Assembly: GCF_010728925.1 (NCBI RefSeq)
Contig: NZ_AP022608.1
Span: 620,001 to 684,000 of the forward strand
DNA: 64,000 nt
Origin: Mycolicibacterium gadium
GTDB lineage: Bacteria; Actinomycetota; Actinomycetes; Mycobacteriales; Mycobacteriaceae
Direction: 5' to 3'
This document shows positions 1,952 through 43,644 of this stretch, piece after piece. Every line of letters begins with the position of its first letter. Within the stretch, counting starts at the first letter, position 1. The notes beneath the pieces are model-generated. The model saw only the letters and a list, made by a program, of their open reading frames with translations. It did no database searches and was not told where the DNA came from. A program made the position numbers and the translations under genes.

Positions 1952-6992
<5,041 letters not shown>

Positions 6993-11049: not shown

Positions 11050-12809
11050 TGCTATCCGAGATACGCATCGAGTCGCTCGGCGCGATCAGCACTGCGACCG
11101 CGGAGTTCGGTCGCGGTCTCACCGTGCTCACCGGCGAGACGGGCACCGGCAAGACCATGGTGGTCACCAGTCTGCATCTGCTCGGCGGTGCGCGCGCCGA
11201 CGCCACGCGGGTACGGTCGGGTGCGCCCCGCGCTGTCGTCGAGGGCCGGTTCACGACAAGTGAACTGGGAGAAGATGTTACGGCCCAGATCGACGAGATC
11301 CTCGATTCCTCCGGGGCCGAGCGCGACGACGACGGCAGCGTCATCGCTGCCCGCTCCGTCGCTCGTGACGGGCCGTCGCGGGCCTTCCTCGGCGGACGCA
11401 GCGTGCCCGCGAAATCGCTGGGAACGTTCACCACCGAACTGCTCACCTTGCACGGTCAGAACGATCAGCTGCGGCTCATGCGGCCCGACGAGCAACGTGG
11501 GGCACTGGACCGTTTCGTCGACATCGAGAAGCAGCTCAAGCGATATCAGAAGCTGCGGGAAGAGTGGCTGGCCGCGCGCCGCGACCTCGTCGACCGTACG
11601 CAACGGGCGCGCGAACTCGCCCAAGAAGCCGACCAACTCGAGTTCGCCCTGAACGAGATTCACACCGTTGCACCGCAGCCCGGTGAGGACCACGGGCTGG
11701 TCGCCGACATCCAGCGGCTGTCGGAGCTGGACGCGGTCCGGGAAGCGGCGCAGACCGCACGGGCCGCGCTGACCGGGGATGACGATCCGTCGCCCGAAAC
11801 CGTGTCCGCGTTCGGCGCCGCGGGACAGGCGAAGTCGGCATTGGAGGCGACCGAGGACACGACGCTGCGGGCGCTGGGCGCACAACTCGACGGTGCCCTT
11901 GCGGTAATCGGCGATGTGGCAAGCGAACTCGGCGATTATCTGGCGGCGCTGCCCAGTGACGCAAGCACCCTCGAGGCGAAGTTGCTGCGGCAGAGCGAGC
12001 TGCGCACGCTGACGCGTAAGTACGCTGCCGACATCGACGGTGTGCTGCAATGGGCGCAACAGTCGCGGGAGCGGCTGACGCAACTCGACGTGTCCGAAGA
12101 GGCGCTCGCCGATCTGGAACGTCAGGTCCGCGCGCTGCACGACCAGGTCGTCCTCGCCGCCAATGACCTCACCAAGGCGCGGACCAAAGCGGCCAAGGGG
12201 CTGTCCAAGGCGGTGACCGCCGAACTGTCCGGGCTGGCGATGGCCGACGCCGAGTTCACTGTCTCGGTGGCGCCGCTCGCCGCGCGCGTCGACGACACCG
12301 CACCACTGACCGTGTCCCCGGGTGTGATGGCGCACGCCGGCCAGTACGGCGTCGACGCCGTCGAGTTCGGCTTCGCCGCGCACCGCGGCATGGATGTGCT
12401 TCCACTGAACAAGAGCGCGTCCGGCGGTGAGCTGTCACGCGTCATGCTCGCGCTCGAGGTCGCGCTGGCCGCTTCGACCGAGGGCACGACGATGGTCTTC
12501 GACGAGGTCGACGCGGGAGTGGGCGGGCGGGCGGCGGTGCAGATCGGGCGTCGACTGTCCCGGCTGGCCAGAACGCACCAGGTCATCGTCGTCACTCACC
12601 TGCCGCAGGTGGCCGCCTACGCCGACGTGCACCTGATGGTTTCCAGCGGCGGAAAGGGCAAGGCCAGCGGCGTGCATCGGCTGGACGACGACGACCGCGT
12701 GGCCGAACTCGCGCGGATGCTGGCGGGCCTTGGCGAATCCGACAGCGGCCGCGCGCATGCCCGTGAACTACTGGAGGCGGCGCAGCAAGACCGAGGCGAT
12801 AGCGGCTAG
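11049..12809 (+). CDS. recN: DNA repair protein RecN
   Basis: An SMC-like ATPase acting early in double-strand-break repair. The 586-residue product has Walker A GETGTGKT near residue 30, a central coiled coil, the ABC signature SASGGELSRVMLA near residue 457, Walker B TMVFDEVDAGVGG, and a C-terminal HQVIVVTHLPQVAAYADVH switch. It matches Rv1696. The GTG at 11049 shares its first base with the last base of the nadK stop codon. A GTG at 11034 is a possible alternative start. Confidence 0.94.
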   Translation: MLSEIRIESLGAISTATAEFGRGLTVLTGETGTGKTMVVTSLHLLGGARADATRVRSGAPRAVVEGRFTTSELGEDVTAQIDEILDSSGAERDDDGSVIAARSVARDGPSRAFLGGRSVPAKSLGTFTTELLTLHGQNDQLRLMRPDEQRGALDRFVDIEKQLKRYQKLREEWLAARRDLVDRTQRARELAQEADQLEFALNEIHTVAPQPGEDHGLVADIQRLSELDAVREAAQTARAALTGDDDPSPETVSAFGAAGQAKSALEATEDTTLRALGAQLDGALAVIGDVASELGDYLAALPSDASTLEAKLLRQSELRTLTRKYAADIDGVLQWAQQSRERLTQLDVSEEALADLERQVRALHDQVVLAANDLTKARTKAAKGLSKAVTAELSGLAMADAEFTVSVAPLAARVDDTAPLTVSPGVMAHAGQYGVDAVEFGFAAHRGMDVLPLNKSASGGELSRVMLALEVALAASTEGTTMVFDEVDAGVGGRAAVQIGRRLSRLARTHQVIVVTHLPQVAAYADVHLMVSSGGKGKASGVHRLDDDDRVAELARMLAGLGESDSGRAHARELLEAAQQDRGDSG

Positions 12810-15082: not shown

Positions 15083-18527
<3,445 letters not shown>

Positions 18528-30948: not shown

Positions 30949-32208
30949 TTAGGCGGCGTGCGTTGGGGCGCTGGATAATTCCGGGTCCAGTCGGCCCGTG
31001 CGGTCGAGCCGGTAGAGCGCCGCGGCAGCTGCCAGCCCGACCGCTGTCAACGCGAACCAGATGAGTTCTTCACGCCCGGCGGCGCGGGCGGCTTGCATCA
31101 GCGCGCCGGTGGCCAGATTGCCTGCCAAAATGCCGATGCCCACAATCGTGTTGTAGAAGCCGTAATGTGTCCCGACCAATCGGTTCTTGGCCAACGAGAC
31201 GACGGTGTCCATCTCGAAGGGAAACACTGCTGCGGAGCCGACAGCAAGAACTGCTGCGGCAACGACCAGGGCGCCGACTGCGGCAAGCTCGCCGAACCGT
31301 GCTGCGCTGGGGAACGCGATCAGTGGGGTGAAGGCGGTGGCAAGGATCAGCATGCCGATCACCAGCGAGTGCCCCGACCCCCAGCGCCTGGTGAACCATC
31401 GGGTGATGCGCAGCTGCCCTGCAACGGCCACAAGTCCCGACACGACGAAGACCATTGCGACGACAAGCGATTCATGGGCGGGTACGAGGTTCTTAGCGTG
31501 CAACGGCAGCGCCAGGTAAACCTGAAAGGACAGAATGTAGGAGCCGATCATCGCGGTGGCGAAAAGTAGGAAGGATCGGTTTGCGAGGACCGTCCGCCAA
31601 TCGTGCAGAACGGTGGTCTTCTCGAGTTGCGGCGTCGCCCGATGCTGCGGCAATGCGAACAGCTGGGCGACGGTCAGAATCGCGAACACGACCGCAGCCG
31701 ACGCCGCGACTACGCGAAAGTCGAAGGCCAACAGTGCAAGCCCAACCAACGGCCCGGCCAGTATTCCCGCTTGATAGAAGATGTTGAATGTCGCGAACGC
31801 TTCGACGCGTCGTGGTCCTGAATCGGCGGCGAGGTAGGCGCGAACAGCCGGATTGAACAGAGCACCCGCGAAACCTGTTGCTGCGGAAGCGATCAGCACC
31901 GCAGGTAGCGAATCGGCGACCACCAGCAAGGCGAATCCGCCGGTGCGGAGTATGCACCCGGCGACGATCAGCGGCTTGAACCCGAGGCGGTCGGCGAGTG
32001 TGCCGCCCACAATGAACATGCCCTGCTGCGAGAAGTTCCGTACGCCCAGCACGAGACCGATCGCCCACGCGGCAAGTCCAAGCGGACCGGCGAGATACCC
32101 GGCGAGATAGGGCATCAGCATGTAGAAACCCAGGTTGATGCCGAACTGATTGACCATCAACATCCGGCTGGGCCAGCCGAAGCTACGAAACTGTCCGGTG
32201 AAGCTCAT
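30949..32208 (-). CDS. MFS transporter, Rv0849 type
   Basis: A 419-residue major-facilitator protein with twelve hydrophobic segments and an MFS loop ([17 protein letters not shown]) between helices 2 and 3. It is the third gene of an operon with cysK2 and lpqS, the same order as Rv0847-Rv0848-Rv0849 in M. tuberculosis, where the cluster is copper-induced through RicR. The ATG overlaps the cysK2 stop as ATGA (32205-32208). Substrate unknown; a sulfur metabolite or metal chelate is possible from context only. Confidence 0.88.
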
Positions 32209-33314
32209 CGCGAGACCGCTGTCGGATCTGTGATCGATGACGTTCGTGTCCAGGATGTGACGACGTGATTGCGTGGATCGGTGATGAGTTCTGGATCGCG
32301 TGGCGGAGTGCCGGTAAACAGCCCGTTGACGCCGCAGTAGTCATCGTTGTAGACGGTATCGAAGTAGCGTTGCGGCCCATCGGGAAAGACCGCCGCAATG
32401 GTTGCGCTGGATGAATTGGTCCGTGCGACCCAACCGGCTACCAGAGCGACCGCGCCGACGCTCCAGCCACCTGTGGCGTAGTGGGTAGCGGCCAGCGTGC
32501 GGCATGCCCATACGGCTTCCTCGGGAGCGACCCAGTGAACTTCATTGAAGGCGGCGTAGTCCACATTGCGAGGGTAGATACTCGACCCCAGCCCACGCAT
32601 CAATCGGGGCCGGGCCGGCTGACCGAAGATGGTTGAGCCGATTGTGTCGACGCCGATGAGCTGCAGTTCGGGATTGGTTTCACGCAGTACCCGCGCTATG
32701 CCGGCCGAATGGCCTCCGGTGCCGACAGAGCAGACGAGTACGTCGATCGCGCCCAGTTGCGCTGACAGCTCTTCTGCCAGACCCCGATAGGCGTCGACGT
32801 TGTCGGGATTGTTGTATTGATCCGGATACCACGCGTCGGGGTCGGATTCGAGGATCTCCATCACGCGGTTTCGTCGCGCCTGCTGCCACCCACCTTCGGG
32901 ATGCGGTTCGGTGACGACATCGACGTCGGCGCCGTACGCGGTCAGCATCCGCGAGATGATCGGCTCGAGTCCGGGATCTGTAATGAGAGTCACTGGGTGG
33001 CCATAGACAGTGCCGGCCAGGGCCAGCCCTAGTCCCAATGTGCCGCTTGTTGATTCGACGATACGGCTGCCGGGCCCCAAGTCGCCGCGGACGCGGCCTC
33101 GTTCGACCATGTGGATGGCGGGACGGTCTTTCATTCCGCCGGGGTTGAACCCTTCGAGTTTGGCCCAAAACCCGCGACTGCCGTCTGTGAACGGCGCCGC
33201 AATCCTCAGTACAGGTGTATTTCCGACCATCGTGCCGGGCTTGTCGAAGCGACGCAGGCGTTGATGATGGACGGCGTAGTGGTGTGGCGAGTGAACGGAC
33301 AGAGCATGGCTCAT
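32205..33314 (-). CDS. cysK2: S-sulfocysteine synthase CysK2
   Basis: A 369-residue PLP enzyme of the cysteine synthase family. The PLP lysine is in [19 protein letters not shown], the substrate loop is [13 protein letters not shown], and the phosphate-binding loop is [14 protein letters not shown]. The long C-terminal part distinguishes CysK2 (Rv0848), shown to make S-sulfocysteine from O-phosphoserine and thiosulfate, from ordinary CysK1/CysM. It lies between lpqS and the MFS gene, overlapping the latter by 4 bases. ATG start at 33314. Confidence 0.87.
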
Positions 33315-33420: not shown

Positions 33421-33831
33421 TCAGCGGCGCGCGATGCAGAGTCGAAGCAGCAGCTGCTGCCCGGCGACGGAACCACCCCGTCTTGGAGGGCCTCGGATAA
33501 CAGCAGGCGAACCCGTTGCCCACATGGAGAATGCCGCGCCGATGACGGCGACGAGGCCGATTGCGACCAGTAGCGTCACTGTGCGCGGCAAGGGGGCTTC
33601 GGCGAACGCGTTGGGCGCGATGGGGACGGAACCGTCCTGCACGTGCGGGTGCTCTATGACGGCAGCAAAGTCGTTCGAGATGGACGACGACAGGGCGTGC
33701 GGGCCATGATGCGCCAGGGGGTTGTGCTCGGTGAGTTTCCATCCGGTACCGGCAACCAGCACGACAAGCGCGACCAGTAGCGCGATGACGGCGTGCCGTC
33801 GCGCACTAAAGGGAGCGTCGTTGTACCTCAC
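33421..33831 (-). CDS. lpqS: LpqS-like copper-associated membrane protein
   Basis: A 136-residue protein resembling M. tuberculosis LpqS (Rv0847). An N-terminal hydrophobic segment (VIALLVALVVLVAGTGWKL) precedes a His-rich exported stretch (TEHNPLAHHGPHALS, IEHPHVQDG), a second hydrophobic segment (TVTLLVAIGLVAVIGAAFSM) and the conserved basic tail RGPPRRGG...LCIARR. The usual lipobox Cys is not seen, so it may be membrane-spanning rather than a lipoprotein. The GTG overlaps the stop of an upstream small ORF as GTGA and has no clear Shine-Dalgarno, implying translational coupling. Confidence 0.75.
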   Translation of the reverse strand: MRYNDAPFSARRHAVIALLVALVVLVAGTGWKLTEHNPLAHHGPHALSSSISNDFAAVIEHPHVQDGSVPIAPNAFAEAPLPRTVTLLVAIGLVAVIGAAFSMWATGSPAVIRGPPRRGGSVAGQQLLLRLCIARR

Positions 33832-34029: not shown

Positions 34030-34052
34030 ATCTACGGTTTCACTCCGTAGAT
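34030..34052 (-). promoter_or_regulatory. Dyad 1: operator-like palindrome upstream of lpqS operon
   Basis: Perfect 8-bp arms ATCTACGG (34030-34037) and CCGTAGAT (34045-34052) flank a 7-bp spacer. On the minus strand the second arm runs into TAGATAATC, a good -10 hexamer region (34034-34027), so a bound protein would block RNA polymerase. The same element recurs at 35781-35803. CTAC/GTAG half-sites resemble those of BlaI/CopY repressors, but the spacing is wider than their classical boxes. Confidence 0.7.
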
Positions 34053-34273
34053 TGGCGGTTGCTTACCGAATCTAGACATCCTGCCGATGCGATGGCTCCG
34101 TGCGCTCGCAGTGCATTCTGTTCGGCGCCGGTGCATCCCATGCATCGCCCTGTTGTGATGGGAATCACACGTGATGCTGCCGCAACATCCATGTGGAAGC
34201 GACTCAACACAGGGGTCTTGTGACTCGCGGTGGGAATGGACGACGCGTGTCCCTGGCTAATATCTCGACGCCG

Positions 34274-35197
34274 TCAGTGGTGACACAGATGTTGGATAAG
34301 GGCAGGCGCGCCGAGCATCATCGTCATGCTCATTGCGAGCATAAGTCTCTGGCTCCACTTGGCTCGCCCGCGCGCAGGCTGAGCAAGTCGGATCGCGCGC
34401 GCTGCTACCGCGGTGCCGGCCGCCGCCAACCCTTCGGCGGGGACGGAACTGTGTGGTTCTGCCATGGCAAGCAGACCGCCCAGGATGGGGTTGACCCCAT
34501 GTCGGCGAGCGGCAGCGTCGTCAGCGCACATCTCCAGCAGTTCAGCAACCGCATGAGCGCCCTGCTGCATCAAGGGCAGTCGCGGAAGGGCCGCCGCCAT
34601 CGCTCGCAGCACCATCAGTAGCTGGTGATGCCGACCGGCGATATGTGCCTGCTCATGCGCCAAGACAGCGGAAAGCTCGGAGCTGGCCAAAGACGACCAC
34701 GCAGCACTGGTTACCACGATCGCAGGAGGGCGCCCGGACACGCAGTAGGCCGCCGATCTCTGGGCGTCGACGACGACAACGCCGGGGCGCGTGGTCCGCC
34801 GACCCACCAGCAGCACTGCGTTGGCGTGCTCGCGGCTTCGCGACCTCAGCTGCGTGACCGATCGACTGGTTCTCACGAAGAAGATGATCAACACACTGAT
34901 GCCGACGATCGTCAACGCTATTGAGCCACTTAGGCCGGGGAGCCCCCCGTGCTCGGAAAGCCCGAACAACTCGAGGCACAAGGTGACCGCCGACGTGCCG
35001 AAGACCCCGTCGATAGCTGCAGCACCGATGAGCACCACGGCGATGACCCATGCGATGAGCGTCGCTGCGATCGCCGTCAACCAGGCCGCCACTCCCAGCT
35101 GAGGGCTGACGCCGGACTTGGTGAGCCGTCGCAGAAGTGATGGTAGAAGCCAGGCCAGCGCGGCGCCGTAGAGCAGCAGCCATAAGCCAGTGGTCAT
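34274..35197 (-). CDS. M56-family membrane zinc metalloprotease (BlaR1-like)
   Basis: A 307-residue membrane protease. Hydrophobic helices lie near residues 3-25, 35-60, 88-108 and 283-300, with the zinc motif HEQAH in SAVLAHEQAHIAGRHHQL and a downstream ECADDAAARRHG-like element (MCADDAAARRHG). It lacks the C-terminal penicillin-binding sensor domain of BlaR1, like M. tuberculosis Rv1845c. Family members cleave BlaI-type repressors after a signal. Its ATG overlaps the stop of the repressor frame (35194-35197), confirming that the two formed one translational unit. Confidence 0.85.
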   Translation of the reverse strand: MTTGLWLLLYGAALAWLLPSLLRRLTKSGVSPQLGVAAWLTAIAATLIAWVIAVVLIGAAAIDGVFGTSAVTLCLELFGLSEHGGLPGLSGSIALTIVGISVLIIFFVRTSRSVTQLRSRSREHANAVLLVGRRTTRPGVVVVDAQRSAAYCVSGRPPAIVVTSAAWSSLASSELSAVLAHEQAHIAGRHHQLLMVLRAMAAALPRLPLMQQGAHAVAELLEMCADDAAARRHGVNPILGGLLAMAEPHSSVPAEGLAAAGTAVAARAIRLAQPARGRAKWSQRLMLAMSMTMMLGAPALIQHLCHH

Positions 35198-35565
35198 CGG
35201 CGCCGGGTACCTCCACGGCGCAACGCTGAGCGCAATTGCGCAGATTCTTCAGCGCTCATCTGCTCGACGAAAAAGGCCAACACCGCATTGGTGTCGCCGC
35301 CCGTCTCGAATGCAGCGCGCATCAGTCGCGCGGAACGCTCTTCGCGACTCATCACAGGGCGATACAATTACGCCTTGCCGCTGCGTTCACGGCTCAGCCA
35401 CTCCTTGCGATGGAGGTTGTCCATCGTCGACATCACGGTGGTGTAGGCGATCTGGCGATCGGCGGAGAGTTCGTCAAATATCTGGCGCACTGTCACGGGA
35501 TCTTCGTAGTCCCAAACGAGGTCCATGATGACGGCCTCCAGGTCACCGAAAGCTCGCTGTTGCAT
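35194..35565 (-). pseudogene. BlaI/CopY-family repressor interrupted by an in-frame stop
   Basis: The winged-helix half is intact: RAFGDLEAVIMDLVW, PVTVRQIFDELSADRQIAYTTVMSTMDNLHRKEWLSRERSGKA. A TAA follows (35368-35370 on this strand) where relatives have Tyr. The same frame then continues for 57 sense codons, LYRPVMSREERSARLMRAAF to QLRSALRRGGTRRR, which is the normal dimerisation domain, and ends overlapping the M56 ATG. One base change, no frameshift. The ATG at 35565 has GGAG 8 bases upstream and gives the family N-terminus (stop at codon 66); a GTG at 35625 would add 20 residues. Recent nonsense mutation, sequencing error or readthrough are all possible. Confidence 0.8.
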
Positions 35566-35780
35566 GTCGTACTCCGCATCGACACGGTCCGACGTCCACC
35601 GCGTCACTCGACTGTTCTTCGACACAATCTAACTGTCGTCTGGGTCAAGCGGCTGTGACACGCACGCGTGATGCACGGGTTGCGTCGCCAAGACCCGGAT
35701 TTGAGCAGACCGCGACCGGCGTGGCAGGTCGGCGACGCAATCATTCGGAATACGCGACCCGCCGTATCTCATCTCCGCTC

Positions 35781-35803
35781 ATCTACGGTCTTACCCCGTA
35801 GAC
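35781..35803 (+). promoter_or_regulatory. Dyad 2: operator-like palindrome between blaI and ycnI
   Basis: Arms ATCTACGG (35781-35788) and CCGTAGAC (35796-35803) with a 7-bp spacer; it matches dyad 1 at 19 of 23 positions. On the plus strand the second arm overlaps TAGACT (35799-35804), a good mycobacterial -10. It sits in the divergent region between the repressor/M56 genes (minus) and the ycnI operon (plus), so it could control both directions. Confidence 0.7.
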
Positions 35804-35813
35804 TGTGCCCGCG

Positions 35814-35960
35814 GTGAGGAAGAGCGCCTCGGGCACGTATGGGAGAGATGGTGTGGACGTGAGCGACCGTACGTTGCTCAACGGCAATTCCGAGCTGAGG
35901 CAGGCACTTTCGATGTCGATTCGAAGACTGCTATTCACAAGCGGAGGTGGTCGGTGTTGA
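35814..35960 (+). CDS. Putative leader ORF upstream of ycnI
   Basis: A 48-residue frame (VRKSASGTYGRDGVDVSDRT... to LLFTSGGGRC) starting at a GTG 9 bases after the -10 of dyad 2, so the transcript could be leaderless or nearly so. Its stop (35958-35960) overlaps the ycnI GTG by 7 bases. It ends in a single Cys and has no known domain. The arrangement mirrors the ORF upstream of lpqS. Third-position GC is modest; it may serve only in regulation, or be chance. Confidence 0.35.
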   Translation: MRKSASGTYGRDGVDVSDRTLLNGNSELRQALSMSIRRLLFTSGGGRC

Positions 35961-36664
35961 AGATTCTTGTGCGCATCGTCGGAACATTGATAGTCAGTGG
36001 CGTGGCGGCACTGCTGGCAAGCCCTTCAGCGGCCGCTCATGTCGACGCCATCCTCGAGGGTGGGGGACCAGGGGAGACGGGTCTAATCACACTGCGCGTT
36101 CCCGGCGAATCAGCTAACCCAGCCACCACCAAGGTAGAAGTGCGCATCCCCGACGACATTCAGATCCGCACCGTGCTGGCTCAGCCGGTTCCGGGCTGGA
36201 AACTGGATATCAAGAAGAAGAAAACGGATCCACCGATCTACCGAGACGACGGTACGCCGGTCGACGAGGTGGTCAGTTCGGTGACCTGGACTGCGACAGG
36301 CCAGGGAATTCTGCCGGGCCAGTTCGACGACTTTGTCCTCGAGGCCGGGCCGCTGCCGGATATCGAGACTCTGGCCTTGCCCACGTATCAGACCTTCGCC
36401 GATGGGACCACCGACGCCTGGACGGAACCGGTGCCCGAAGGCAGCGACCCGGAGTACCCGGTGCCGTCAGTGAATCTCGGTGCGACTTCGGACGGTGCGT
36501 CCGGCGGCACCGGTATTACTTCGGTCATTGCCTGGACCGCTCTGGGCTTCGCGGTGATCGCCGTCGCGTTAGGGATCTTCTCGATAGACCGGGCCCGACG
36601 ATCCGCCCATCCTGTGCTACCTGGTGCGGAGGCGACTCCCCAGCGCGCCACGGACACAGAGTAG
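35954..36664 (+). CDS. YcnI-family (DUF1775) copper-binding protein
   Basis: A 236-residue exported, membrane-anchored protein. The signal peptide ends at ...SPSAAAHVDAI, leaving His as the mature N-terminus; in studied YcnI proteins this His, with a conserved Trp, binds Cu(II). The DUF1775 domain follows (GLITLRVPGESANPATTKVEVRIP; QPVPGWKLDI; VVSSVTWTATGQGILPGQFDDF). A C-terminal helix (VIAWTALGFAVIAVALGIF) anchors it. The GTG at 35954 has GGAGG 6 bases upstream. It is the first recognisable gene of the copper-type operon behind dyad 2. Confidence 0.88.
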   Translation: MLKILVRIVGTLIVSGVAALLASPSAAAHVDAILEGGGPGETGLITLRVPGESANPATTKVEVRIPDDIQIRTVLAQPVPGWKLDIKKKKTDPPIYRDDGTPVDEVVSSVTWTATGQGILPGQFDDFVLEAGPLPDIETLALPTYQTFADGTTDAWTEPVPEGSDPEYPVPSVNLGATSDGASGGTGITSVIAWTALGFAVIAVALGIFSIDRARRSAHPVLPGAEATPQRATDTE

Positions 36665-36702
36665 CCACGGCCCGAACGACCGGACTTCCGAAGAAATTGA
36701 TC

Positions 36703-37128
36703 ATGAGTAGAAGCTGCGTTTGGCTAAGGGCGAGCGCAATTGGAGCGGCTGCCGCCGTCTTGGCGGCGTGTGGTTCGGAGCCCTCGCCTTCCAACTCCTC
36801 TGCTGCGCAGTCGCCTTCTGCGCAAACCTCTGCGGCGACACCTTCGACGAGCGCTGAAGCCGGGATGGTCATCGATGTCACCGTCGACAAGGGCGTGGCG
36901 ACACCCACAAACGCGACGGTTCAGGCCGTCGCGGGCGAGCCAATCGTGCTTCAGGTGACCAGCGACGCCGAGGACAGCCTGCACGTGCACTCGGTGCCCG
37001 AACACGTCTTTGACGTGGCCGCCGCCCCCGACCAGCGCTTCGAGTTCACCGTCGACATTCCGGGCCGCGTCGCTGTGGAGCTGCACGACTTGCACGTCAC
37101 AGTCGTCACCATCGAAGTCCGGCCTTGA
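36703..37128 (+). CDS. Cupredoxin-like lipoprotein
   Basis: A 141-residue lipoprotein with lipobox VLAAC near residue 22, a Ser/Pro/Ala linker, and a small beta domain (VIDVTVDKGVATPTNATVQA ... EPIVLQVTSDAEDSLHVHSV ... PGRVAVELHDLHVTVVTIEV). The His-containing loops HVHSVPEH and ELHDLH could bind copper, as in cupredoxins, though a canonical Cys-His-Met site is not seen. It lies 38 bases after ycnI, and its stop overlaps the next gene's TTG start. Confidence 0.78.
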   Translation: MSRSCVWLRASAIGAAAAVLAACGSEPSPSNSSAAQSPSAQTSAATPSTSAEAGMVIDVTVDKGVATPTNATVQAVAGEPIVLQVTSDAEDSLHVHSVPEHVFDVAAAPDQRFEFTVDIPGRVAVELHDLHVTVVTIEVRP

Positions 37129-38495
37129 CGCCCGAAGCCGCGGTGACGGTCCTCGCGCACGGCGTAGGCGGATCGACCGATCTCCCAGTGCCGTTGTCGT
37201 ACGCGCTGATTGGGGCCGCTTGGGCCTTGGCTGCGACATTCGCCGTTGTCGCTGTGGCCTGGAAGACGCCGCGATTCGACCCAGACAAGCCAGGACGCGA
37301 ATTACCCGCGTGGGTGACTGCTGCCGTCGACTCCCCGGTCGTACGATGGATCGTCGCGGGTGCCGCCGCGATCTTCTCCATCTGGGTGGCCGTCGCCGCA
37401 ATCTGGGGACCCCAAGACAGTGACAACGCGCTACCGGGTGTGTTCTATGTGCTGCTGTGGGTCGGACTCGTCGTCATTTCAGTTGTCGTGGGCCCAATTT
37501 GGCGAGTGATCTCGCCGGTGCGCACTGTATGGCGACTGGTGCAGGTCGGACGGCGCGACGCCGCGGCCTCTCAGGGCCGTGTGCAGTACCGGCCGGGCTG
37601 GGGATACTGGCCGGCGGTGTTGGGGCTGTTTGCCTTTGTGTGGCTGGAACTGGCAAGTTCCGATCCCGGCTCGCTCACGGCGATCAAGATCTGGACTCTG
37701 ATCTACCTCGTCGCGATGCTGGCCGGCGCAGCACTATTCGGAACGACGTGGTTCGCTCGAGCCGACCCCTTCGAGGTGTACAGCGTGACAGTCTCGCGGC
37801 TGGCGCCGTTTAGAAGAAATCGCGTCACAGGGCGAATTGTCGTCGGAAATCCGCTCGATCATCTGCCCAGCATGCCGGTGCGTCCAGGCACCGTAGCGGT
37901 GATCGCGGTGCTGCTCGGATCCACCGCGTTCGACAGCTTCTCCCAGTCCGCTACCTTCGGTAACTTCGTCAATCGCAACGCCGCCGCCATTCCTCTGGTC
38001 GACGATTCCGCGGGCGGCACGGTGCTTCGAACCCTCACGCTCTTGCTCTTCGTGCTTGCAGTCGGCGTGACATTCTCCGTTGCGGCTCGCGCGGCCGCCG
38101 GTGTAAGTCGTGAACGACGTCGCGAGTTACCCGCGCTACTCGCTCACAGCCTCATTCCCATTGTCGTGGGATACATTTTCGCCCATTACCTCTCCTACCT
38201 CGTCGAGCGAGGCCAGGAGACCATTGTGCGGCTCGCCGACCCGCTCGGCAGGGGCTGGCACCTACTCGGCCTGGACTCCGGTGACGTGCAGTACTTCCTA
38301 TCTCTGAACCCGACATTGTTGTGGACCATCAAGGTCGCCGCCGTGGTCATCGGACACATATTGGCTGTGATCGCCGCGCACGACAAGGCACTGCGGGTGC
38401 TGCCAGTGGGCCATCAATTGACCGGCCAGCTCGCGATGATGCTGACAATGGTCGGTTATACCTTCGCCGGCCTGTACCTACTGTTCGGCGCTTGA
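37125..38495 (+). CDS. Multi-pass membrane protein of the YcnI operon
   Basis: A 456-residue protein with about ten to twelve hydrophobic helices, including PLSYALIGAAWALAATFAVV, GVFYVLLWVGLVVISVVVG, IWTLIYLVAMLAGAALFG and MMLTMVGYTFAGLYLLFG. I do not recognise a named family with confidence; its place after YcnI and a cupredoxin-like lipoprotein is where CopD-type importers are often found. The TTG at 37125 overlaps the previous stop as TTGA; a GTG a few codons downstream is an alternative start. Role in copper transport is inference from position. Confidence 0.75.
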   Translation: MTPEAAVTVLAHGVGGSTDLPVPLSYALIGAAWALAATFAVVAVAWKTPRFDPDKPGRELPAWVTAAVDSPVVRWIVAGAAAIFSIWVAVAAIWGPQDSDNALPGVFYVLLWVGLVVISVVVGPIWRVISPVRTVWRLVQVGRRDAAASQGRVQYRPGWGYWPAVLGLFAFVWLELASSDPGSLTAIKIWTLIYLVAMLAGAALFGTTWFARADPFEVYSVTVSRLAPFRRNRVTGRIVVGNPLDHLPSMPVRPGTVAVIAVLLGSTAFDSFSQSATFGNFVNRNAAAIPLVDDSAGGTVLRTLTLLLFVLAVGVTFSVAARAAAGVSRERRRELPALLAHSLIPIVVGYIFAHYLSYLVERGQETIVRLADPLGRGWHLLGLDSGDVQYFLSLNPTLLWTIKVAAVVIGHILAVIAAHDKALRVLPVGHQLTGQLAMMLTMVGYTFAGLYLLFGA

Positions 38496-40779: not shown

Positions 40780-41080
40780 AATGGCTATGCGACATCACAT
40801 CTCAACCTGACCGAGACTGACGCGTAACTGTTGTCCGCGGTCGGGCTGAGGCCGAGTCGCCGTGCTCGCCGAGCAGCCCAAACGGCTGCTGTGTGAGGGC
40901 ATTTCGCGCGGCGGCGTCGGCGAGCCGAGTACGGTTGTCGTTCTTTATCGAATCTTCACAGAACGACTAGTGGGGCCATACCGGCGGCGCGGATGCTCGA
41001 ACACACATCGGGATGGGCCATGCGTCAATCAGGGCGCTGCAGCCGCGTCGACCGTGAAAACCAGAAGGGACTTGTCTGTG
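40780..41080. promoter_or_regulatory. Divergent promoter region with response-regulator-like motif
   Basis: The 301 bases between the His-rich protein and the DUF305 gene carry no gene I can support. At 40949-40964 lies CGAATCTTCACAGAAC, closely matching CGAATCTTCGTAGAAG at 43699-43714 in the promoter of the nearby response regulator. Both contain the core CTTC-N3-GAA. Confidence 0.4.
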
Positions 41081-41743
41081 ATGAAGAGGAAGACGCTGGC
41101 CGTCGGTGCGGCCGCCCTGGCCGCACTGGTCACCGTCGGTGCGTGTGGCAGTACCAGCACTACGCAGGAAGCTGATTCGTCGTCGGTGTCGGCACCGTCG
41201 GCCTCGGCCACCGAAGCCCACAATCAGGCTGATGTGATGTTCACCAAGCACATGATCCCTCATCATCAGCAGGCAATCGAGATGAGCGACATAGTGTTGG
41301 CCAAGCAAGGAATCGACCCGCGAGTTCTAGATCTCGCCAAGCAGATCAAGGCTGCTCAGGGTCCCGAGATCGAAACGATGCAGGCCTGGCTCACCCAGTG
41401 GGGCGTGCCCGCGATGCCGATGATGCCCGGGATGGATATGCCGGGTCACAGTGGGATGCCGGGTCACGGTGGGATGCCGGGCATGCCAGGGATGGACGGC
41501 ATGCCAGGGATGGCCGGCATGATGTCCGAGGAGGACATGGCCGCACTGCAGAACGCCCAGGGGGTGACAGCCGCCAAATTGTTCCTGACCCAGATGGTCG
41601 AGCATCACGAGGGTGCAATTGTCATGGCGCAGAACGAGATCAAGGATGGTCAGTACCCCGACACGATTGCCTTGGCGCGCTCGATCGTCACCAGCCAGCA
41701 ACAGGAGATCGACACGATGAACACGATCCTGGCCTCGTTGTAG
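41081..41743 (+). CDS. DUF305 lipoprotein with Met/His-rich loop
   Basis: A 220-residue lipoprotein (lipobox VTVGAC near residue 21) with the DUF305 four-helix fold: FTKHMIPHHQQAIEMSD and LTQMVEHHEGAIVMAQNEI hold the paired His and Met residues typical of the family. Between the helices lies an unusual insertion of repeated GMPGM/GHGGMPG units with about 15 Met and 2 His, similar to copper-binding methionine motifs. Probably an outside-facing copper(I) binder. ATG at 41081 (a GTG one codon earlier is possible). It converges with the sensor kinase gene. Confidence 0.85.
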   Translation: MKRKTLAVGAAALAALVTVGACGSTSTTQEADSSSVSAPSASATEAHNQADVMFTKHMIPHHQQAIEMSDIVLAKQGIDPRVLDLAKQIKAAQGPEIETMQAWLTQWGVPAMPMMPGMDMPGHSGMPGHGGMPGMPGMDGMPGMAGMMSEEDMAALQNAQGVTAAKLFLTQMVEHHEGAIVMAQNEIKDGQYPDTIALARSIVTSQQQEIDTMNTILASL

Positions 41744-41776
41744 CAGCCAGGTTAGGTCGTGAAAGCCGCGAGGGTG

Positions 41777-42907
41777 TCAGCGGTTGATGGGTAATTCGAT
41801 TGTGAAAGTACTGCCCAGCCCGGCTCCGCGGCTGGCTGCCGTGATGCGGCCGCCGTGGGCCTCGGTGAGGGCTTTGGCGATGGCCAACCCGATCCCGGCG
41901 CCGCCGTGGCCCCGGTCGCGAGCGACATCGGCGCGATAGAAGCGCTCGAACACGTGCGGGAGGTGCGCGGCAGCGATGCCATCACCATTGTCACTCACCG
42001 TGATGATCAGTCCGCCGGGCTGCGCCGCCGCCTTCAGCTCGACGTGACCACGCGGGGCGGTGTGACGGAGAGCGTTGTCGAGAAGGTTTCCGACCACCTG
42101 TGCCAGGCGCAGAGGATCTGCCCACACCTTGGGCAGCGGGTTGACGGCATCGAAGGACAACTCGACGCCCTTGTCCGCATATCGATCAGCTGCCGCAGCC
42201 ACGGTGGCGGAGATCGCAGCCCGAGGATCGATCCACTGAGGGGCGACCGCACCGGGCCCTTCCTCGGCTTGAGCGAGCGCGGCCAAGTCATCGGAAAAGC
42301 CCACCAGCCGTCCCGCTTGATCGTTCAGCACTGCAACCGTCTCGGGGTTTAGCGTTTTCACTCCGTCCTCGACAGCCTCGACGTAGGCCTTGAGCACCGA
42401 GACCGGTGTCCTGATCTCATGGGCGAGGTCACCGAAGAGTTGGCGCCGGGTGGTCTCGACCGTTTCGAGCCGCTCAGACATCCGATTGAACGCGCCGGAC
42501 AGATTCGCGAAATCTTCCCCCAGGTGCAGTGGCGACACGCGGATGTCATAGCGGCCGTCAGCGACCGCAGTGGCGGCGGAAGCGACTTCGGCAATTGAGC
42601 GCTGCAGGCGGCGGCTGAAGTACCACGTCACGAGAAGGGCGGTCAATGCGGCCACCCCGATGGCGACCGCGATGGAGATGGCTGTGGCGTACCGGTAGGC
42701 CTGCTCGGCGTGGAACTGTTCATTGGATGAATGGGGGAGCCCCGCCTGTTGCAGGTGGTCCCGGAACAGCGGTGGACCGACGATGACAGCGACGATCCAT
42801 GTGGTTGCGCCGCCGGCGAGGAGCACCAAGGCCTGCGCCAGCAGTAGCCGGGCGCCGACTCCAGGACTGCGCCGTGACCCGGGCTGAATGCTCATTACTG
42901 TCCTCAC
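41777..42907 (-). CDS. Sensor histidine kinase
   Basis: A 376-residue membrane kinase with TM1 (LLLAQALVLLAGGATTWIVAVIV), a short extracellular loop with scattered His (DHLQQAGLPHSSNEQFHAEQ), TM2 (ISIAVAIGVAALTALLVTWYF), HAMP, the H box FGDLAHEIRTPVSVLKAYVE, N box VVGNLLDNALRHT, and G boxes VSDNGDGIAAAHLP and GGAGIGLAIAKAL. The GTG at 42907 overlaps the response-regulator stop by 4 bases. The metal context suggests an envelope metal signal, but nothing in the loop proves it. Confidence 0.93.
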   Translation of the reverse strand: MRTVMSIQPGSRRSPGVGARLLLAQALVLLAGGATTWIVAVIVGPPLFRDHLQQAGLPHSSNEQFHAEQAYRYATAISIAVAIGVAALTALLVTWYFSRRLQRSIAEVASAATAVADGRYDIRVSPLHLGEDFANLSGAFNRMSERLETVETTRRQLFGDLAHEIRTPVSVLKAYVEAVEDGVKTLNPETVAVLNDQAGRLVGFSDDLAALAQAEEGPGAVAPQWIDPRAAISATVAAAADRYADKGVELSFDAVNPLPKVWADPLRLAQVVGNLLDNALRHTAPRGHVELKAAAQPGGLIITVSDNGDGIAAAHLPHVFERFYRADVARDRGHGGAGIGLAIAKALTEAHGGRITAASRGAGLGSTFTIELPINR

Positions 42908-43644
42908 TGGCCACTTCCCATTCGGTAGCCGACACCGCGGACCGTGATCACGTAGCGGGGATCGGCGGGGTCATCCGCCAACTTGCGGCGCAGATGTCCG
43001 ATGTGAACGTCGACTAGATGCTCGTTGCCACCCCAGTAGTCTCCCCAGACGGCCTCGAGGAGCTGGCGGCGAGTAAAGACCACGGCCGGCCGCGACGACA
43101 ATGCGGCCAGGACGTCGAACTCGGTGCGGGTCATCAGGACTGGCTCGTCGTCGAGGAACACTCGGCGGCCCGCGACGTCGATGGATAATGGCCCGAACGC
43201 CCGCGGTGGGGGTTCGGCGACGGTTCCCGCGGCATGTGTCGGCGTTGCGACGGTGCGAGGCCGACGCAGCATGGCCCGGATCCTCGCGACCAATTCGCGG
43301 GGACTGAACGGTTTGGTGACATAGTCGTCTGCACCGACCGACAGGCCCACGACGGTGTCCAGTTCGGTATCGCGTGCGGTGAGCATCACTACATAGGCAT
43401 CGGAAAACGAGCGCAGTTGGCGGCATACCTCCAAGCCGTCGATGCCCGGCAATGCGAGGTCCAAAACGACAACGTCCGGGTCGATCTCACGAGCTTGCGT
43501 GAGGGCGTCGGCCCCGCTGTGAGCAATGCTGACATCGAAATGCTCGCGTCTGAGGTAGCTCGCCACGACTTCGGCCAGAGCCACCTCGTCGTCGACCACC
43601 AACGCTCGATAACCCGCAGGGTGGGTGGCCGCAGGCGTGTCCAT
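42904..43644 (-). CDS. OmpR-family response regulator
   Basis: A 246-residue regulator. The receiver domain has the acidic pair in VVDDEVAL, the phospho-acceptor Asp in DPDVVVLDLALPGIDG and Lys in VTKPFSPREL. The winged-helix DNA-binding domain ends LVDVHIGHLRRKLADDPADPRYVITVRGVGYRMG. It is first in the two-gene unit with the histidine kinase. A motif shared with the DUF305 promoter lies about 55-70 bases upstream of its ATG. Confidence 0.94.
   Translation of the reverse strand: MDTPAATHPAGYRALVVDDEVALAEVVASYLRREHFDVSIAHSGADALTQAREIDPDVVVLDLALPGIDGLEVCRQLRSFSDAYVVMLTARDTELDTVVGLSVGADDYVTKPFSPRELVARIRAMLRRPRTVATPTHAAGTVAEPPPRAFGPLSIDVAGRRVFLDDEPVLMTRTEFDVLAALSSRPAVVFTRRQLLEAVWGDYWGGNEHLVDVHIGHLRRKLADDPADPRYVITVRGVGYRMGSGQ

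What the first reader, a model, noticed from the sequence alone, without database searches (positions are those of the whole stretch)
34030..35803. Two matching 23-bp dyads mark a shared regulon around a BlaI/M56 pair
Sequence shows ATCTACGG-N7-CCGTAGAY at 34030-34052 and 35781-35803, identical at 19 of 23 positions including all of both arms except the last base. Each overlaps a -10-like hexamer (TAGATAAT on the minus strand; TAGACT on the plus strand). They face the lpqS-cysK2-MFS operon and the blaI/ycnI divergent region. I saw no other copy in the window. BlaI-type repressors with M56 proteases classically control beta-lactamase genes; here the genes flanking the dyads are copper-type. This suggests a metal response run by a protease/repressor pair. 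The spacing (CTAC-N11-GTAG) differs from classical BlaI/CopY boxes, so the binding protein is not proven.
Basis: partly seen in the sequence, partly recalled or inferred. Interest (0 to 1): 0.78.

Follow-up and report, generated by a model that had tools for sequence, protein, structure and literature searches.

The report
Repressor site on copper-resistance genes
Two matching DNA palindromes in this mycobacterial genome look like landing sites of a BlaI-type repressor that works with a membrane protease and, in many related bacteria, appears to have taken over copper-resistance genes from another copper repressor; here the repressor gene beside them is broken.

Summary
In detail: two dyads, 19 of 23 positions identical, at 34030-34052 and 35781-35803. 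They are instances of a widespread operator, ATCTACK-N9-MGTAGAT (core CTAC-N11-GTAG). In 198 same-genus genomes, exact copies occur in 54, 48 of which carry a copper-type M56 gene, against 35 of the 144 without (Fisher p 6e-17). The dyad lies within 200 bp upstream of blaI (2 mismatches or fewer) in 28 of 74 loci from several actinobacterial genera, against 2 of 1480 shuffles; this autoregulatory position is the best evidence that BlaI binds it. Upstream of cysK2, an unsupervised search ranks CTAC-N11-GTAG first where a copper-type M56 is close and TACC-N7-GGTA (a RicR/CsoR-type box) first where the genome has none; the two are almost mutually exclusive there, so this operon seems to have changed repressor. 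In relatives the second dyad travels with ycnI, not blaI. Other genes behind such dyads include L,D-transpeptidases, NlpC/P60 hydrolases, P-ATPases and cytochrome oxidase. In this genome the adjacent blaI stops after 85 codons, so control must come from paralogues or be lost. Copper as signal, M56 cleavage of BlaI and direct binding are inferred. The paper library did not complete; the literature was not checked.

The parts
34030..34052 (-). Dyad 1, operator candidate facing lpqS-cysK2-MFS, 199 bp upstream of the lpqS ORF
   Evidence: in 22 of the 24 loci with local M56 and a dyad it lies 716-783 bp upstream of cysK2 or is the 2-mismatch site at that position; one further site is at 1732 bp
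35781..35803 (+). Dyad 2, operator candidate facing ycnI, 150 bp upstream of the ycnI ORF
   Evidence: kept upstream of ycnI in L099, L100, L102, L104, also where blaI lies elsewhere
35368..35625 (-). blaI, truncated: 85 codons, then an in-frame TAA at 35368-35370; the piece holds the winged-helix part only
   Evidence: PF03965 match 6.2e-15 over residues 27-84; blaI ORFs of 123-192 aa in five relatives
34274..35197 (-). M56/M48-type membrane metallopeptidase, 307 aa, HEQAH at residue 181, no sensor domain found
33421..33831 (-). lpqS-like small protein (name recalled from gene order)
   Evidence: ORF; no Pfam match
32205..33314 (-). cysK2-like PLP-dependent enzyme
   Evidence: PF00291 2.1e-52
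30949..32208 (-). MFS transporter, last gene of the operon
   Evidence: PF07690 1.6e-35
35954..36664 (+). ycnI-like DUF1775 protein, copper-type (function recalled)
   Evidence: PF07987 3e-35
36697..37128 (+). Lipoprotein, cupredoxin-like by eye only
   Evidence: ORF; no Pfam match; stays with ycnI in relatives
37125..38495 (+). Membrane-type protein of 456 aa, third gene behind ycnI
   Evidence: ORF; no Pfam match; stays with ycnI in relatives

Best explanation
The dyads are operators of a BlaI-family repressor of an actinobacterial clade that is encoded with a short M56/M48-type membrane protease. A BlaI dimer sits on ATCTACK-N9-MGTAGAT over the promoter of lpqS-cysK2-MFS and of ycnI, and keeps them off. 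A copper or envelope stress makes the M56 protease inactivate BlaI, and the copper genes, and in other genomes also cell-wall and respiration genes, come on. In genomes without the pair the lpqS operon usually carries a RicR/CsoR-type box instead, so the operon has moved between two repressors. Shown by sequence: the operator, its co-occurrence with the pair, its place upstream of blaI in many genera, the near exclusion of the two operators at this operon, the ycnI and lpqS targets. Inferred: direct binding, repression, protease action, copper as the signal. In this strain blaI is truncated, so the sites are served by paralogous BlaI proteins (at least six other blaI genes were found in the stretches fetched from this genome) or the genes are constitutive.
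For: Spacing scan in 27 M56 loci of relatives: CTAC-N11-GTAG 49 times, other spacings 0-10 except N0 (38) and N3 (23). Panel of 198 genomes: 48 of 54 dyad genomes have a copper-type M56 (E 1e-25 or better), 35 of 144 others do; p 6e-17. Upstream of blaI: 28 of 74 loci with 2 mismatches or fewer, 2 of 1480 shuffles, in Nocardia, Rhodococcus, Amycolatopsis and others (6 of its 80 loci were dropped for want of a usable blaI); earlier set 14 of 37 non-core blaI at p 0.05 or less, the window and one site inside a called gene among them. Base 7 of each half-site, not used to select sites, is G or T in all 194 half-sites of 97 dyads to the precision printed. cysK2 upstream regions: top-ranked dyad CTAC-N11-GTAG in 19 of 37 with local M56 (0.3 expected), TACC-N7-GGTA in 24 of 37 without M56 (0.15 expected); per-site table. 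74 of 81 dyads are intergenic, 5 of the 81 counted twice from overlapping loci. The dyad stays while flanks diverge.
Against: No binding data. 35 of 83 M56 genomes have no exact dyad; 6 of 54 dyad genomes have no M56 at that cut-off. Of 25 cysK2 loci whose genome has an M56 only elsewhere, 21 have neither operator. 9 of 37 loci with local M56 keep a RicR-type box, and Rhodococcus plasmids with the pair beside the operon have a 2-mismatch RicR-type box at the lpqS-like gene and the BlaI-type dyad at the multicopper oxidase instead. 46 of 74 blaI genes have no match of 2 mismatches or fewer within 200 bp upstream. The classical BlaI/MecI box, recalled as TACA-N2-TGTA, has another spacing, and how a BlaI dimer would span N11 is not explained. 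Phylogenetic relatedness inflates all counts; the reversed control, too, was unevenly spread (2 of 25 control genomes with M56, p 1e-4). In one search another dyad, CGCT-N8-AGCG, is more frequent in raw count in the local group (28 of 37, 2.6 expected) and occurs in the other group too (22), so not every repeated dyad there is an operator.
Confidence: 0.77

Rival explanations
1. The dyad is bound by another regulator that travels with the same copper islands, such as the OmpR-type orphan regulator found behind a dyad in several genomes.
For: OmpR-type genes lie downstream of a dyad in eight loci printed, and ArsR-type regulators stand behind two dyads.
Against: The OmpR subfamily (E 1e-50 or better) occurs in 22 of 198 genomes and not in this one, while the dyad occurs in 54. 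The dyad is upstream of blaI itself in other genera. Other regulators were not put through the panel.
Confidence: 0.12
2. The dyads are CsoR/RicR-family sites, as expected for lpqS from the RicR regulon.
For: lpqS belongs to the RicR regulon in M. tuberculosis (recalled, not checked).
Against: The RicR-type box ATACCC-N5-GGGTAT (name and consensus recalled; the dyad itself came out) is a different dyad, found at this operon in 26 of 37 loci of genomes without copper-type M56; the best match at the window's lpqS has 4 mismatches.
Confidence: 0.04
3. The dyads are relics: with BlaI truncated and no other BlaI reading them, the operon is constitutive in this strain.
For: 85-codon blaI with in-frame stop; the other blaI genes are at other loci.
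Against: At least six further blaI genes in this genome, one 69 bp downstream of a 2-mismatch dyad; dyads unspoiled. The stop could also be a sequencing error. This rival concerns this strain only and is compatible with the best explanation elsewhere.
Confidence: 0.35
4. Chance palindromes or transcription terminators.
For: Strict form occurs 3 times in the genome, control 5.
Against: Conservation in position and sequence while flanks diverge, spacing peak, near exclusion with the other box.
Confidence: 0.01

Closest known systems
BlaI/MecI-BlaR1/MecR1 of staphylococci and bacilli (recalled)
   Same: BlaI-family repressor (PF03965) encoded with an M56-type membrane protease; dyads at target promoters and upstream of blaI.
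   Different: No penicillin-binding sensor domain found on the 307-aa protease; targets are copper, envelope and respiration genes; half-sites CTAC/GTAG are 11 bp apart rather than the recalled 4.
BlaI Rv1846c with Rv1845c of M. tuberculosis (2g9w is the best solved match; that it is this protein is recalled)
   Same: Nearest solved structure by sequence; the core-type blaI of this genome (L037) also has an M56 partner.
   Different: Core blaI genes carry another conserved upstream element with GTAGTA half-sites (8 of 8 rows), and no CTAC-N11-GTAG lies in the two core loci examined, L037 and L051.
RicR/CsoR copper repressors of mycobacteria (recalled)
   Same: Same operon, lpqS-cysK2-MFS.
   Different: Different operator, mostly present where the BlaI-type operator is absent.
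CopY copper repressors (recalled)
   Same: BlaI-fold repressor on copper genes.
   Different: CopY has no M56 partner and uses TACA-N2-TGTA (both recalled).

Membership tests
BlaI/MecI/CopY repressor | Winged-helix domain PF03965 | tested here: met
   6.2e-15 for the window's 85 residues
BlaI/MecI/CopY repressor | Complete protein with C-terminal dimerisation part | tested here: not met
   Window ORF stops after 85 codons; five relatives 123-192 aa
BlaI/MecI/CopY repressor | Operator with TACA-N2-TGTA (recalled) | tested here: not met
   TACA-N2-TGTA not enriched in M56 loci (0 in 27 loci); CTAC-N11-GTAG is
BlaI/MecI/CopY repressor | Operator upstream of its own gene | tested here: met
   28 of 74 loci, 2 of 1480 shuffles; in the window the near dyad follows ycnI in relatives
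BlaR1/MecR1 sensor protease | HExxH zinc motif in a multi-pass membrane protein | tested here: met
   HEQAH at 181, hydrophobic stretches 4-22, 33-75, 85-115 by a simple hydropathy scan
BlaR1/MecR1 sensor protease | Pfam M56 above its cut-off | tested here: inconclusive
   PF05569 19.9 bits, cut-off 31; PF01435 M48 passes at 34.3
BlaR1/MecR1 sensor protease | Extracellular penicillin-binding sensor domain | tested here: not met
   307 aa in all, no such domain in the Pfam scan
BlaR1/MecR1 sensor protease | Cleavage or inactivation of BlaI on signal | not testable with these tools
   Needs an experiment
RicR regulon member | RicR/CsoR-type box at the operon | tested here: not met
   Best match at the window's lpqS has 4 mismatches; the window's two 2-mismatch hits lie at 4151 and 41423
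Beta-lactamase regulon | Beta-lactamase gene among the targets | tested here: inconclusive
   None among the 30 of 59 downstream genes that were scanned; 29 were not scanned

The most novel reading that the evidence does not exclude
A metal or cell-wall signalling system, made of a sensorless M56 protease and a BlaI repressor with an 11-bp-spaced operator, governs mobile copper islands across Mycobacteriales and related orders, and has repeatedly exchanged control of the lpqS-cysK2 operon with RicR. Because copper poisons L,D-transpeptidases (recalled), the islands bring their own L,D-transpeptidases and wall hydrolases under the same switch, and the protease may sense copper through wall damage rather than the metal itself.
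Probability: 0.35. Interest if true: 0.8.

Novelty: new variant of a known kind. Interest (0 to 1): 0.63.

Why it matters
It gives an operator sequence for a BlaI/M56 clade that has none known to me, makes regulons readable from sequence in many actinobacteria, points to an operon that has changed from one copper repressor to another of a different fold, and links copper resistance with peptidoglycan cross-linking enzymes that matter for beta-lactam action in mycobacteria (recalled). Whether any of this is in print could not be checked, since the paper library did not complete.

Tried and rejected
The exact dyad CTACGG-N7-CCGTAG at C1:358003, near a second lpqS-cysK2-MFS operon in the same genome, first looked like a third operator; the better candidate there is a 2-mismatch site 737 bp upstream of cysK2, near the position kept in relatives, and the exact hit is probably chance. 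The OmpR-type regulator as binder was rejected. Seven of 81 dyads lie inside called genes; the host genes of two of them were scanned and are COX1. Of the 12 sites with 1 mismatch or fewer in this genome, five lie in islands with blaI or M56 and all five keep G or T at base 7 of both half-sites; of the other seven, five break that rule, one lies in a called gene (L098) and one upstream of a GlnR-type gene (L097). They look like background. Structure prediction was not used, because it would not have settled how a BlaI dimer spans N11. The core-blaI comparison gave a different element and no bridge to N11.

Dropped rows: one cysK2 upstream region of 90 bases was left out (99 of 100 used; four of the 99 were shorter than 2 kb because the contig ended); 27 of 53 cysK2 loci of the class with M56 elsewhere were not fetched; one search did not list all sites (75 were used); 6 of 80 loci had no usable blaI.

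Full report
What is there. The two dyads are as described. Dyad 1 faces an operon of an lpqS-like gene, a cysteine synthase-like gene and an MFS transporter; dyad 2 faces ycnI (DUF1775), a lipoprotein and a membrane-type protein. Between them lie an M56/M48-type protease gene and a blaI that ends at an in-frame stop after 85 codons. The genome is a 5.96 Mb single contig; the nearest named relatives by this M56 are Mycobacteriaceae (90% best identity to a MAG).

More than chance. The short strict form is not significant in the whole genome (3 against 5 in the reversed control); with the outer AT the relaxed form gives 12 against 4. In 61 genomes, exact ATCTAC-N11-GTAGAT occurs 14 times in 9 genomes, all of the same genus. 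In 198 same-genus genomes it occurs in 54; 48 of these hold a copper-type M56 at E 1e-25 or better, against 35 of the other 144. The reversed control was found in 25 genomes, 2 of them with such an M56. Of 75 listed sites 26 lie within 2 kb, 45 within 5 kb and 55 within 15 kb of a listed M56; 20 do not. Genomes are related, so p values are too small; the direction is clear.

What the operator looks like. Smaller peaks, such as N0, N3, N8, N15 and N18, reflect CTACGTAG palindromes and overlapping dyads shifted by 7-8 bp, so two dimers may sit side by side (inference). The symmetrised profile of 97 dyads is ATCTACK-N9-MGTAGAT, with G or T after CTAC without exception at the precision printed, though that position was not selected on.

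Who binds. The dyad lies upstream of blaI in 28 of 74 loci with 2 mismatches or fewer (2 of 1480 shuffles), including Nocardia, Rhodococcus, Amycolatopsis and a Streptosporangiaceae MAG. That is the expected place of an autoregulated repressor and points to BlaI rather than to a fellow traveller. The OmpR-type rival occurs in 22 of 198 genomes and not in this one. Of 39 BlaI proteins in the loci, 23 share the stretch YTTVMSTMDNL, the window's among them, whereas the core BlaI has YTTIMTVLQRL; core blaI genes have another upstream element. Direct binding is not shown.

Repressor exchange. I took up to 2 kb upstream of cysK2 from 100 of 127 places and used 99. An unsupervised 4-mer dyad search ranked CTAC-N11-GTAG first where an M56 lies within 12 kb (19 of 37 loci, 0.3 expected), and TACC-N7-GGTA first where the genome has no copper-type M56 (24 of 37, 0.15 expected); ranking was by excess over shuffles, and a CGCT-N8-AGCG dyad was frequent in both groups. 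With full-length boxes and 2 mismatches: local M56, BlaI-type only 24, RicR-type only 9, both 0, neither 4; no M56, BlaI-type only 0, RicR-type only 25, both 1, neither 11; M56 elsewhere in the genome, 2, 2, 0 and 21 of 25. Shuffles gave 3 of 297 for the RicR-type and 9 of 297 for the BlaI-type box. The name RicR-type is recalled. Rhodococcus plasmids are a mixed case: a 2-mismatch RicR-type box at the lpqS-like gene, a BlaI-type dyad at the multicopper oxidase gene and, in L292 and L293, one with 1-2 mismatches upstream of blaI.

Which gene each dyad serves. In the close relatives L099, L100, L102 and L104 ycnI keeps the dyad with nearly invariant arms; in L100 and L102 blaI is about 3 kb away from it. 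In L101 a second lpqS-cysK2 copy has the dyad without an M56 on the 9 kb fetched. So the two dyads are best read as two target promoters, not as a blaI promoter.

Wider targets. Behind dyads in the loci (59 genes, 30 scanned) stand a cluster of 10 related proteins, of which the 3 scanned are Big_10-YkuD L,D-transpeptidases, NlpC/P60 and M23 hydrolases, DsbA-like and redoxin-type proteins, ResB, DsbD, COX1 and COX3, P-ATPases, a multicopper oxidase, a cation efflux protein, a DUF305 protein and regulators. In this genome one dyad with 1 mismatch lies 41 bp before an L,D-transpeptidase gene. That copper inhibits these enzymes is recalled and would explain the company.

Mechanism and limits. The protease has HEQAH and three hydrophobic stretches but no sensor domain found, so beta-lactam sensing in the BlaR1 manner is unlikely. 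Copper as inducer rests on gene content. The truncated BlaI holds the DNA-binding part only; whether it binds is unknown, and at least six other blaI genes are present. No paper could be read (13 failed calls), so novelty against the literature is unverified.

Noticed in passing
35368-35370: In-frame TAA ends blaI after 85 codons; five relatives have ORFs of 123-192 aa. Real mutation or sequencing error is open.
   Followed up: partly
L034 (C1:345000-364999): A second lpqS-cysK2-MFS operon in the same genome with two BlaI/M56 pairs, an M56 fragment at 12138-12429, a multicopper oxidase, an L,D-transpeptidase-like gene and a further blaI at 18133.
   Followed up: partly
L292, L293, L295, L296: Rhodococcus plasmids carry the same operon; an exact dyad precedes the multicopper oxidase gene in all four, and one with 1-2 mismatches precedes blaI in L292 and L293.
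   Followed up: partly
G061, G163, G169, G183, G199, G202, G208: Orthologues of the OmpR-type island regulator show one in-frame TAG in eight matches of seven genomes; recurrent stop unexplained.
   Followed up: no
40862-43599: DUF305 protein, histidine kinase and response regulator next to the copper genes, a CopRS-like pair by position only.
   Followed up: no
L037, L051 and core blaI relatives: Core blaI genes share an upstream element TACGAC-N5-GTAGTA (8 of 8 rows), in most followed by a second GTAGTA-like repeat.
   Followed up: partly
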